Shown one piece after another: positions 4,918 through 6,599 of a DNA stretch of 10,991 nt. The first letter of the stretch is position 1. Every line of letters begins with the position of its first letter. This DNA is from Chryseobacterium sp. (GTDB lineage: Bacteria; Bacteroidota; Bacteroidia; Flavobacteriales; Weeksellaceae), in the NCBI GenBank assembly GCA_003852805.1, contig RDDY01000153.1, positions 1 through 10,991 on the forward strand, written 5' to 3'. The notes under the pieces were generated by a model. It saw nothing but the letters and a program-made list of their open reading frames with translations. It was not told where the DNA came from and made no database searches. The translations under genes were made by a program, and so were the position numbers.

Positions 4918-5526
4918 TTATGAGAAATCAAACCGCATCAAATCTTCAAGATCATTGAGTGCGGGGTTGATCTCAGCAAATTTATCAAATATTTTACGCT
5001 TCGTCAGGATTTCCTTTTTCAGATTCTCGTCTTGCACATATTCTACCGTGATGCTGAAATTGTTGACACGGTGCATAAAATGATTCAGAAAGCGGCGGCG
5101 CACCGTTTCCATTTCTGCTTTAACCGCTTGTGACGGTATTTTGATGTTAATGAGATTCTCGCCTGCTTTCAACAAAATGCAGGTGCTGATGGCCGCAAAC
5201 TTGACGGGATCTTTTTCGCGCAAGTCAACCAAGAACTCACTCCAATGCTCGTGCAGATCGGTCTCTGTAAAATGAGCGGCGGGAAGATCTTGGGGCTTTT
5301 CTTCTACCGTGTCCGGTTTTTCCTCCGTTCGGTTCAGCCAAGATTTGATGCTGAAGGCATTTACCGACGACGACGGTGCTTCTGTTTTTTTTTCGGGAGC
5401 CGCAGCAGCAGGAACCGGTTTAGGCGTACTTCGGGACTCGGCTACAACGGAGACTCTCTCTGCGCCGTTCGGCATTTCGCCGCCCCGACCTTCCTCGCTG
5501 TACCGAGGAGCTATTATGCGGAACTT
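4918..5526 (-). CDS. dnaX: DnaX tau-specific C-terminal extension, in -1 frame relative to gamma
   Basis: This 202-codon frame lies at -1 to the gamma frame and is open from the A10 run to TAA 4920-4918. Joined by a -1 shift after K358 it gives a 560-residue tau. It reads KFRIIAPRYSEEGRGGE, then a Pro/Ala/Glu-rich linker with AFSIKSWLNR, then a compact alpha/beta C-terminal domain ending in EINPALNDLEDLMRFDFS. In tau the C-terminal region contacts the replicative polymerase and the helicase, so that one clamp loader links both strands' polymerases. An internal ATG at 5475-5473 (MPNGAERV) would make a 185-residue orphan, and an automatic pipeline would probably call this a separate hypothetical protein. 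I favour the fused reading: the segment before that ATG is open back to the slip site and reads like the linker of flavobacterial DnaX, and there is no promoter or separate gene signal. Confidence 0.82.
   Translation of the reverse strand, partial: KFRIIAPRYSEEGRGGEMPNGAERVSVVAESRSTPKPVPAAAAPEKKTEAPSSSVNAFSIKSWLNRTEEKPDTVEEKPQDLPAAHFTETDLHEHWSEFLVDLREKDPVKFAAISTCILLKAGENLINIKIPSQAVKAEMETVRRRFLNHFMHRVNNFSITVEYVQDENLKKEILTKRKIFDKFAEINPALNDLEDLMRFDFS
5492..5509 (-). other. dnaX: RNA hairpin downstream of the dnaX slip site
   Basis: On the minus strand TCCTCG (5509-5504) and CGAGGA (5497-5492) form a perfect six-base-pair stem, four pairs of them G-C, with loop GTACAG. It starts 15 bases after the A10 run and 4 bases after the zero-frame TAA. 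Such a stem could stimulate a shift, but the spacer is longer than the 5-9 bases usual for ribosomal -1 frameshifting, so it may be incidental. Confidence 0.45.
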
Positions 5527-6599
5527 TTTTTTTTATTGTCGGCGTCTCCGCTCAACGATGCAAGCTGCATCAACGCGATCTCCACCGTCAAGCGCTGGTT
5601 TTGAGATGTTTTGTAATTGATGTCGGCTTGGTTGCAAATTTCCAACGCATCAATCAATTCTTGAGGCTGCCAAGCCAAGCTCTGCTGCAAATATTTCTCT
5701 TTGGTTTTCTCACCGACCTCTATCAGCCCGACAGTCATCGGATTTTGCGCCATCATCAGATCGCGGAAATGATTGCCGAGTCCGGCAATGAAAATGTGTG
5801 GGTCGAAACCTTTTTTAACGATTTCGCCAAACTTCAGCAGAATCGCAGGAATATCTGCACCTTTCGCCAAATCTGCGATATCCAAATAATAGTCGTAGTC
5901 CAATATATTCAGGGACTCAGCCGCCTTGGCCAGCGTAATATTCTTCTGGCTGAATGTTGCCAAACGATCAAAAATTGAGAGCGCATCACGCAGTGCACCG
6001 TCCGCTTTTTGCGCGATCAAATACAAAGCATCGTCCTCGTAAGAGATACCCTCCTTCTCCGCAATCTTCCGCAAATGCGCTTGGATGTCTTCGATTTGGA
6101 TTCGCTTAAAGTCATAAATCTGGCAACGCGAAAGAATGGTCGGGATAATTTTATGCTTCTCGGTAGTGGCCAAGATGAAGATAGCGTGCGCAGGCGGTTC
6201 TTCCAAGGTCTTCAGAAAAGCGTTGAACGCCGCTGAGGAAAGCATGTGCACCTCGTCGATAATATACACCTTGTACTTGCCTGTCTGCGGAGCAAAGCGC
6301 ACTTGGTCGATCAGTTGACGGATATCGTCTACCGAGTTGTTGGAAGCGGCATCGAGCTCATAAACATTAAGCTCGAAACCGTCGGCATCGGCATCGCTGT
6401 GTTTCTCGTTGATCTTTCTGGCCAAGATGCGGGCGCAAGTAGTCTTGCCCACGCCGCGCGGACCACAGAAAAGAAGCGCCTGAGCCAGTTGGCCTGTGTC
6501 TATGGCGTGATCCAGTGTATCTGTTACATGGGCCTGCCCCACCACGGTATCGAACTCTAACGGCCGGTATTTCCGGGCTGAAACCACGAAGTTTTCCAT
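5514..6599 (-). CDS. dnaX: DNA polymerase III gamma/tau subunit, gamma-like zero-frame product (clamp-loader ATPase)
   Basis: The ATPase of the replicative clamp loader, which opens the beta sliding clamp and loads it onto primed DNA. The zero frame encodes 361 residues: Walker A GPRGVGKTT at 46-54; Walker B with DEVH at 115-118; sensor-1 region ATTEKHK at 144-150; SRC at 157-159, with R158 as the expected arginine finger; GALRDALS at 201-208 (sensor 2); and helical domain III to about 350. The zinc module usual between Walker A and B is absent: residues 62-82 contain no cysteine. The frame ends KKKSSA then TAA TAG, almost exactly where domain III ends, so this product would be a minimal clamp-loader subunit, shorter than the 431-residue E. 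coli gamma. A -1 shift at the A10 run yields tau instead. The DAHP synthase fusion and rsgA follow closely and are probably co-transcribed. Confidence 0.95.
   Translation of the reverse strand: MENFVVSARKYRPLEFDTVVGQAHVTDTLDHAIDTGQLAQALLFCGPRGVGKTTCARILARKINEKHSDADADGFELNVYELDAASNNSVDDIRQLIDQVRFAPQTGKYKVYIIDEVHMLSSAAFNAFLKTLEEPPAHAIFILATTEKHKIIPTILSRCQIYDFKRIQIEDIQAHLRKIAEKEGISYEDDALYLIAQKADGALRDALSIFDRLATFSQKNITLAKAAESLNILDYDYYLDIADLAKGADIPAILLKFGEIVKKGFDPHIFIAGLGNHFRDLMMAQNPMTVGLIEVGEKTKEKYLQQSLAWQPQELIDALEICNQADINYKTSQNQRLTVEIALMQLASLSGDADNKKKSSA
5525..5534 (-). promoter_or_regulatory. dnaX: A10 slippery run for gamma/tau frameshifting or transcriptional slippage
   Basis: The minus strand carries ten consecutive A (AAT AAA AAA AAA AGT in the zero frame). 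The second and third AAA codons with the preceding A form the heptamer A AAA AAA, suited to a tRNA-Lys slip of -1; the run is also long enough for RNA polymerase to add an A. Either event leads into the tau frame. The zero frame stops at TAA TAG three codons later. A GGAG (5549-5546) lies 11 bases upstream of the run, similar in placement to the stimulatory Shine-Dalgarno-like element of E. coli dnaX, though Bacteroidota use such sequences little for initiation. A homopolymer error (true A11) would remove the frameshift. Confidence 0.65.

What the first reader, a model, noticed from the sequence alone, without database searches (positions are those of the whole stretch)
5492..5549. dnaX split by an A10 run: probable programmed frameshift or transcriptional slippage making gamma and tau
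Seen: the zero frame reads AAT AAA AAA AAA AGT TCC GCA and then tandem stops TAA TAG; the -1 frame is open from the same run through 202 codons of tau-like C-terminal sequence. The break falls at the end of clamp-loader domain III. A GGAG lies 11 bases upstream and a 6-bp hairpin 15 bases downstream. Known: E. coli makes gamma by -1 ribosomal frameshifting on A AAA AAG and Thermus makes gamma/tau by RNA polymerase slippage on an A9 run. Here the polarity is the Thermus/E. coli logic with tau as the shifted product. The long run and the loosely placed hairpin favour slippage over ribosomal frameshifting. The caveat is that A11 in the real genome would give one uninterrupted tau frame.
Basis: partly seen in the sequence, partly recalled or inferred. 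Interest (0 to 1): 0.72.

Follow-up and report, generated by a model that had tools for sequence, protein, structure and literature searches.

The report
dnaX A-run switch: gamma and tau
In this bacterium the DNA-polymerase gene dnaX is cut in two by ten A's in a row, very probably a built-in slip site that lets one gene make a short and a long protein; its relatives keep the run while the default product flips between lineages, and a DNA-repair gene in the same genome seems to be built the same way.

Summary
Confirmed: dnaX (minus strand) reads gamma (361 aa) in frame 0, meets A10 (5525-5534) and stops at TAA TAG; the -1 frame carries 202 codons of tau tail. It is no error: in 143 of 146 genomes of the window's family with a match the open frame ends at gamma size, and 70 of 73 loci read have tau at -1 across A10, A11 or A13. 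Of 216 Bacteroidota loci 197 have A9-A11 at the joint, in all three codon phases. Where tau is in frame, both other frames stop within 8 codons in 76 of 81 loci (control 24%). Polarity flipped at least 19 times, 31 on the best tree. RNA-polymerase slippage fits best; ribosomal -1 shifting is not excluded. The type was described in 2013 (PMC3711429). New as far as my searches go: the polarity flips, and ligD in the same genome with the same layout (39 of 70 family loci have the ligase frame at -1 across A9-A10).

The parts
5514..6599 (-). dnaX frame-0 ORF, gamma-like product, 361 aa, ends KKKSSA then TAA
   Evidence: Pfam DNA_pol3_delta2 6e-35 and DNAX_ATPase_lid 1e-13 over cut-off, DNA_pol3_gamma3 below it; NCBIfam dnaX_nterm 383 bits, cut-off 250
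5525..5534 (-). A10 slippery run, codon phase 0 (AAT AAA AAA AAA AGT)
   Evidence: A9-A11 at this joint in 197 of 216 relatives
5511..5516 (-). tandem frame-0 stops TAA TAG, three codons after the run
4918..5526 (-). -1 frame tau tail, 202 codons plus stop
   Evidence: matches positions 433-610 of the gamma/tau model PRK14971, E 1.5e-11, far below that whole-protein model's cut-off; 38% identity to the in-frame tau tail of L130, E 4e-38
5492..5509 (-). 6-bp hairpin downstream of the run; not conserved
5546..5549 (-). GGAG, 11 bases upstream of the run; absent from the 5 congeners
5385..5393 (-). second run, A9, inside the tau tail and in the tau frame; no run of 9 or more in the tails of the 5 congeners

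Best explanation
The A10 in dnaX is a programmed RNA-polymerase slip site. RNA polymerase copies the run with variable length. Transcripts with ten A's (or ten plus or minus three) are read in frame 0 and stop three codons later, giving gamma (361 aa). Transcripts with one A more (or two fewer) enter the -1 frame and give tau (about 560 aa). Selection holds the run near ten A's and keeps stops close in the frames that are not tau; which frame is the genomic default is free to drift, so the polarity flips between lineages. Shown here: the anatomy, its conservation, purifying selection on the -1 frame among congeners, the polarity flips. Inferred: that both proteins are made, that the slip is by RNA polymerase, and the ratio.
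For: Split conserved: the open frame ends at gamma size in 143 of 146 genomes of the family with a match and in 5 of 5 congeners (run A10 in four, A13 in one, equal modulo 3). Run length is held, phase is not: A10 164, A11 28, A9 6, A13 2, A8 1, A7 1, none 14 of 216; phases 0/1/2 are 82/85/31 of 198 classified. Tau-in-frame relatives keep stops in both other frames: both within 8 codons in 76 of 81, against 24% at control codons of the same genes, the layout described for Thermus. Tau lies at +1 in 4 of 198 (L034, L051, L209, L210), out of reach of a -1 ribosomal shift. At least 31 polarity changes on the best tree, 19 after collapsing branches with support under 95. Flip by one A: L136 (A10) and L130 (A11), protein distance 0.007; flip with A10 kept: Aquimarina L032 and L044. 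Tail dN 0.006-0.008, dS 0.09-0.13 in three close congener pairs. A_AAA_AAG in frame in 0 of 70 gamma-first loci of the family. Same design in ligD.
Against: No transcript, read or protein data. A_AAA_AAA lies in frame in all 198 classified loci, so -1 ribosomal shifting on the same run is not excluded; A_AAA_AAG is in frame in 16 of 43 gamma-first loci outside the family. SD-like motifs 4-18 nt upstream are more frequent than control in those 43 (8, 19%, against 6%), though not at 8-18 nt (1 of 43). In the window the +1 frame stays open 34 codons, so one class of slipped transcript would give an odd tail; it is one of two exceptions among 113 tau-at--1 loci. 15 of 216 loci have no run of 8 or more, and four of these (L073, L074, L097, L227) have a short frame 0 without one. 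The window's own tail is too diverged from its congeners for a dN/dS value (dS saturated). Some one-base flips, and the A9 of L034, could be homopolymer sequencing errors. Loci were picked to cover families with both polarities, so the flip count is not from an even sample.
Confidence: 0.83

Rival explanations
1. Programmed -1 ribosomal frameshifting on A_AAA_AAA within the run, helped by the upstream GGAG and the downstream hairpin, makes tau.
For: A_AAA_AAA is in frame; GGAG and a 6-bp hairpin sit near the run in the window; tau is at -1 in 113 of 198 classified loci; outside the family 16 of 43 gamma-first loci have A_AAA_AAG in frame and 8 of 43 an SD-like motif 4-18 nt upstream, control 6%; the 2016 review speaks of ribosomal shifting for reversed dnaX genes and names Chlorobium phaeobacteroides.
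Against: Run held near 10 rather than 7, and in every codon phase; A_AAA_AAG in 0 of 70 gamma-first loci of the family; mean z of the 60 nt downstream -0.43 in the family, controls -0.29 (150 nt on) and +0.13 (300 nt upstream), elsewhere -0.44 against -0.47 and +0.03; SD-like 8-18 nt upstream 4 of 73 and 3 of 125, control about 5%; tau at +1 in 4 loci.
Confidence: 0.12
2. DNA-level phase variation: the A10 tract changes length between cells, switching dnaX between gamma-only and tau states.
For: Near-identical relatives differ by one A (L136/L130, L132/L167).
Against: A cell locked in a gamma-only state would lack tau, which is expected to be needed for replication (general knowledge, not tested); 143 of 146 genomes of the family have the same state; some flips keep A10 and differ downstream (L032/L044).
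Confidence: 0.03
3. The tail is a separate, independently initiated protein (gene fission).
For: The window tail has an ATG at codon 18 (185-aa ORF), and databases carry such ORFs as hypothetical proteins.
Against: Start codons are not conserved: of 113 tau-at--1 loci 20 have ATG/GTG/TTG in the first 20 tail codons and 14 an ATG in the first 60; residues directly after the run (KFLILAP, KYRIVPP) recur in the tau frame upstream of any start; three relatives have it fused in frame.
Confidence: 0.015
4. Sequencing or assembly error, or a decaying gene.
For: The window is from a 388-contig assembly with junk-like runs near some contig ends.
Against: Same split in 5 of 5 congeners, one a single-contig genome, and gamma-size frame in 143 of 146 family members; tail dN/dS about 0.07 in congeners. 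A 99%-identical 361-aa protein on a 203,744-nt contig is in the protein database, though its row is marked as one the window encodes.
Confidence: 0.005

Closest known systems
Two-ORF dnaX type of Antonov et al. 2013 (PMC3711429; passages, section 23): 17 genes from 12 genera in which tau needs a -1 shift, nine with A10, transcriptional slippage proposed
   Same: Gamma stop in frame 0, tau at -1, A10 at the joint
   Different: No difference in kind for the window. The passages I saw give no polarity flips and no ligD; the supplementary figure with the nine A10 species was not seen, so Bacteroidota may be among them
Thermus thermophilus dnaX transcriptional slippage (A9; PMC1088944 passages; PMC5009743 section 21)
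   Same: A-run, stops near in the non-tau frames, both subunits from one gene
   Different: There tau is in frame 0 and gamma comes from slipped transcripts; here gamma is in frame 0
E. coli dnaX -1 ribosomal frameshifting (PMC5009743 passages and section 21; PMC3711429 section 23)
   Same: Gamma and tau from one gene by a -1 event on A-rich sequence
   Different: There A_AAA_AAG with SD-like and stem-loop stimulators and gamma as shifted product; here no A_AAA_AAG, and SD and stem-loop are not conserved
Shigella mxiE slippage (PMC1088944 passage)
   Same: Slippage needed for the longer product
   Different: U-run, unrelated gene

Membership tests
Two-ORF dnaX requiring recoding for tau (Antonov 2013 type) | dnaX N-terminal ORF and tau-tail ORF overlapping, tail at -1 | tested here: met
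Two-ORF dnaX requiring recoding for tau (Antonov 2013 type) | poly-A run at the joint (12 of their 17 genes) | tested here: met
   A10
Two-ORF dnaX requiring recoding for tau (Antonov 2013 type) | split conserved among relatives | tested here: met
   open frame of gamma size in 143 of 146 genomes of the family
Two-ORF dnaX requiring recoding for tau (Antonov 2013 type) | both products made | not testable with these tools
   no protein data on hand
Transcriptional slippage (Thermus dnaX mechanism) | A or T run of about 9 or more | tested here: met
Transcriptional slippage (Thermus dnaX mechanism) | nearby stops in both frames that do not give tau | tested here: inconclusive
   window: frame 0 after 3 codons, +1 only after 34; relatives: both within 8 codons in 76 of 81 tau-in-frame loci, both within 12 in 111 of 113 tau-at--1 loci
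Transcriptional slippage (Thermus dnaX mechanism) | mRNAs heterogeneous in run length | not testable with these tools
   no RNA reads on hand
Thermus/E. coli polarity | tau in frame 0, gamma shifted | tested here: not met
E. coli-type dnaX -1 ribosomal frameshift | in-frame A_AAA_AAG | tested here: not met
   0 of 70 gamma-first loci of the family, the window included
E. coli-type dnaX -1 ribosomal frameshift | conserved downstream stem-loop | tested here: not met
   6-bp hairpin in the window; in relatives folding is like the +150 control; Rfam on 5300-5700 to E 10 lists three unrelated families
E. coli-type dnaX -1 ribosomal frameshift | SD-like stimulator about 10 nt upstream | tested here: inconclusive
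   GGAG in the window, absent in 5 congeners, 8-18 nt upstream at background in relatives
DnaX gamma/tau protein family | N-terminal dnaX model over its cut-off | tested here: met
   dnaX_nterm 383 bits, cut-off 250
tau domain V fold | fold match of the tail to a solved tau C-terminal domain | tested here: inconclusive

The most novel reading that the evidence does not exclude
A-runs of 9-11 are a reusable, polarity-flipping domain switch in Bacteroidota. Selection holds run length and flanking stops, not the reading frame, so the same two products persist while the genomic default alternates. It is used in at least two genes of this genome: dnaX (gamma/tau) and ligD, where the 3'-phosphoesterase domain is made alone or fused to the ligase and polymerase domains. 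In ligD of the window's family 55 of 70 loci have A9-A11 at that joint, 39 with the long frame at -1 and 16 with it in frame; no A>=9 elsewhere in 129,393 nt; both other frames closed within 12 codons in 15 of the 16 in-frame loci (control 30%); dN/dS 0.035-0.081 in the -1 frame in 6 of 6 pairs tried; at least 6 polarity changes with weak branches collapsed, 11 on the best tree.
Probability: 0.65. Interest if true: 0.75.

Novelty: new member of a known kind. Interest (0 to 1): 0.6.

Why it matters
The role of gamma was long disputed (the 2016 review speaks of 'considerable controversy'). A phylum that keeps a slip site near ten A's through many frame flips is comparative evidence that both gamma and tau are needed, and it offers natural near-identical pairs (A10 and A11) to test it. 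It also means that annotation cuts tau in these genomes: the tail is filed as 'hypothetical protein' in several Kaistella and Chryseobacterium records, and many ligD genes there would look broken although the ligase frame is under strong selection.

Tried and rejected
Ribosomal stimulators: downstream folding, SD-like motifs and A_AAA_AAG gave no support in the window's family. A first SD test with a 22-nt stretch looked enriched outside the family (52 of 125, control 12%); most of this came from motifs within 8 nt of the run (42 of 125), such as GGA GAA; in the 43 gamma-first loci outside the family an excess at 4-18 nt remains (8 of 43, control 6%). Rfam on window 5300-5700 to E 10: three chance matches. 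Pfam on the tail: nothing over cut-off. Sequence profile of the tail against solved structures: one weak match, MJ1481, E 0.008, not pursued. Fold search: nothing at E 0.001 or better. Class-level ligD search: 10 of 80 genomes with a match; L365 is short in frame, the others were not analysed at DNA level. Scan for joints: of 16 exact A10 runs in a single-contig congener, dnaX is the only one joining two long frames, two others lie inside one open frame; of the window assembly's 16 exact A9 runs 15 were shown and none joins two long frames. Outside the class, of 20 loci ten have no run of 7 or more.

Rows dropped before counts: dnaX, 219 loci given, 3 duplicates dropped, 216 kept; 2 cut by the end of the stretch, 1 unclear (its A10 is at codon 453) and 15 without a run of 8 or more left 198 classified. 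ligD: 70 of the 75 match rows were read; three long paralog rows and two short pieces were not. The polarity-change counts come from a quick tree with one-rate-matrix model and SH-aLRT support.

Full report
What is there. The window is contig C199 of a 2.16-Mb, 388-contig assembly. On the minus strand dnaX starts at 6599 and runs 361 codons to TAA at 5514. It has the AAA+ and lid domains and scores 383 bits on the NCBI dnaX N-terminal model, cut-off 250. Just before the stop lies A10 (5525-5534): AAT AAA AAA AAA AGT TCC GCA TAA TAG. The -1 frame is open for 202 codons across and after the run. That tail matches the end (433-610 of 614) of the gamma/tau model PRK14971, E 1.5e-11, and the in-frame tau tail of relative L130 at 38% identity, E 4e-38.

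Not an error. The five congeners (six genomes searched, own included) show the same split: frame 0 closes 3-4 codons after the run, the -1 frame carries 201-202 codons, and the run is A10 in four and A13 in one, equal modulo 3. Of 148 genomes of the family 146 gave a match; in 143 of 146 the open frame is 361-419 aa, in three 560-593 aa. At DNA level 73 loci of the family were read, two of them named ones (L025, L026): 70 have tau at -1 (A10 55, A11 13, A13 2) and 3 have tau in frame, all A11. Three close congener pairs give tail dN 0.006-0.008 and dS 0.09-0.13; L003/L007 give 0.24 and 1.6; the window's own pairs are saturated. A 99%-identical database protein also has 361 aa, but its row is marked as one the window encodes.

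Wider survey. From 80 named loci, family loci and class-level loci (those picked to cover families with both states) 216 distinct dnaX loci were analysed. Longest A-run near the joint: none of 7 or more in 14, A7 1, A8 1, A9 6, A10 164, A11 28, A13 2; one A10 (L055) lies away from the joint, so A9-A11 stands at the joint in 197 of 216. Classified 198: tau at -1 113, tau in frame 81, tau at +1 four. Codon phases 0/1/2 are 82/85/31. The run is not a by-product of lysine codons alone: the AAA share of lysine codons averages 0.74, and the product over loci of the chances of unbroken AAA is 10^-74, not corrected for relatedness; elsewhere in the same genes there are 7 runs of A>=9, one of them A10, in 343,098 nt.

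Stops. In the 81 tau-in-frame loci only the making of gamma would ask for stops in the other frames, yet both lie within 8 codons in 76 (94%), against 24% at control codons of the same genes (medians 4 and 16). This is the layout the review describes for Thermus. In the 113 tau-at--1 loci both other frames close within 8 codons in 98 and within 12 in 111; the two exceptions are the window (+1 open for 34 codons) and L088 (61).

Polarity flips. On a quick tree of 213 N-terminal DnaX sequences, 198 labelled, at least 31 changes are needed; 27, 25 and 19 when branches with support below 80, 90 and 95 are collapsed; shuffled labels need 65 on average, 59 at least in 30 shuffles. L136 (A10, gamma first) and L130 (A11, tau first) are 0.007 apart and differ by one A in the run. 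In Aquimarina L032 and L044 both keep A10 and differ in frame downstream. One-base flips could in part be homopolymer sequencing errors; flips with A10 on both sides are not of that kind.

Mechanism. Slippage explains why length is held and phase is not, why both other frames are closed, and how tau can sit at +1. Ribosomal -1 shifting stays possible for the window, since A_AAA_AAA is in frame (as in all 198 loci), but A_AAA_AAG is in frame in 0 of 70 gamma-first loci of the family (16 of 43 elsewhere). The 60 nt downstream have mean z -0.43 in the family (n 73), against -0.29 at 150 nt further on and +0.13 at 300 nt upstream; elsewhere (n 125) -0.44, -0.47 and +0.03. SD-like motifs 8-18 nt upstream are at background (4 of 73; 3 of 125), while at 4-18 nt there is an excess in the 43 gamma-first loci outside the family (8 of 43, control 6%). 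A separately started tail is unlikely: starts are not conserved (20 of 113 in the first 20 codons), while residues right after the run recur.

Known or new. Antonov et al. 2013 described 17 two-ORF dnaX genes from 12 genera, nine with A10, and proposed slippage (PMC3711429: passages, section 23; its supplementary figure was not seen). The 2016 review notes such reversal in 'many fewer bacteria' (PMC5009743 section 21). The window is a member of that type. In searches (open-licence library only; listings, and passages of three papers) I found no report of the polarity flips.

A second gene. The assembly holds 7 distinct runs of A>=10; four lie within 70 nt of contig ends, three are internal. 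One of the three is in ligD, beside a Ku gene: frame 0 encodes the LigD 3'-phosphoesterase domain (212 aa), and the ligase and primase-polymerase domains lie at -1, open across A10 (Pfam). The other five congeners gave no match; in the family 64 of 148 genomes have it. Of 70 loci read, 55 have A9-A11 at that joint (A10 35, A9 18, A11 2): 39 long frame at -1, 16 long in frame; the other 15 have no run of 9 or more, 14 of them long in frame and one (L353, A8) long at +1. In the 39, both other frames close within 12 codons in 35. The linker between run and first Met is much alike in L325 (-1) and L324 (in frame). Six pairs give dN/dS 0.035-0.081 in the -1 frame. The fewest polarity changes are 11, or 9, 8 and 6 with weak branches collapsed, the odd locus left out; treekit's count with it is 12. 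Searches list no paper on ligD slippage. In ligD a separately started ligase is a stronger rival than in dnaX, because the first Met lies in a recurrent PML motif.

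Noticed in passing
L293 (G000:C365:3494-3503, minus) and L295-L363: ligD is split by an A10 run between phosphoesterase and ligase domains with the same -1 layout as dnaX; 39 of 70 ligD loci of the family share the layout with A9 or A10, and 16 have the long form in frame.
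   Followed up: partly
window 5385-5393, minus strand: A second slippery run (A9) inside the tau tail, in the tau frame; slippage there would cut tau short. No run of 9 or more in the tails of the 5 congeners.
   Followed up: partly
L290 (G000:C222:8390-8401): A12 where the stop of a helicase-like ORF overlaps the ATG of a monooxygenase-like ORF; these names are my reading of the ORFs, no family search was run.
   Followed up: no
protein search hits P0003, P0004, P0019, P0035 and others: The tau tail is filed as 'hypothetical protein' in Kaistella and Chryseobacterium records, an annotation artefact of the split.
   Followed up: no
L254-L259 and L260-L279, other classes of the phylum: A9 with stops in both other frames in 6 of 6 loci of one family (L254-L259); of the 20 loci ten have an A9 or A10 run and ten none of 7 or more.
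   Followed up: partly
L073, L074, L097, L227: Four Bacteroidota dnaX loci with a short frame 0 (366-383 aa) but no A-run near the joint; how or whether they make tau was not looked into.
   Followed up: no
L280, L283, L284, L289: Runs of A10-A13 within 70 nt of contig ends, one followed by a G-rich stretch: likely artefacts of the assembly.
   Followed up: no
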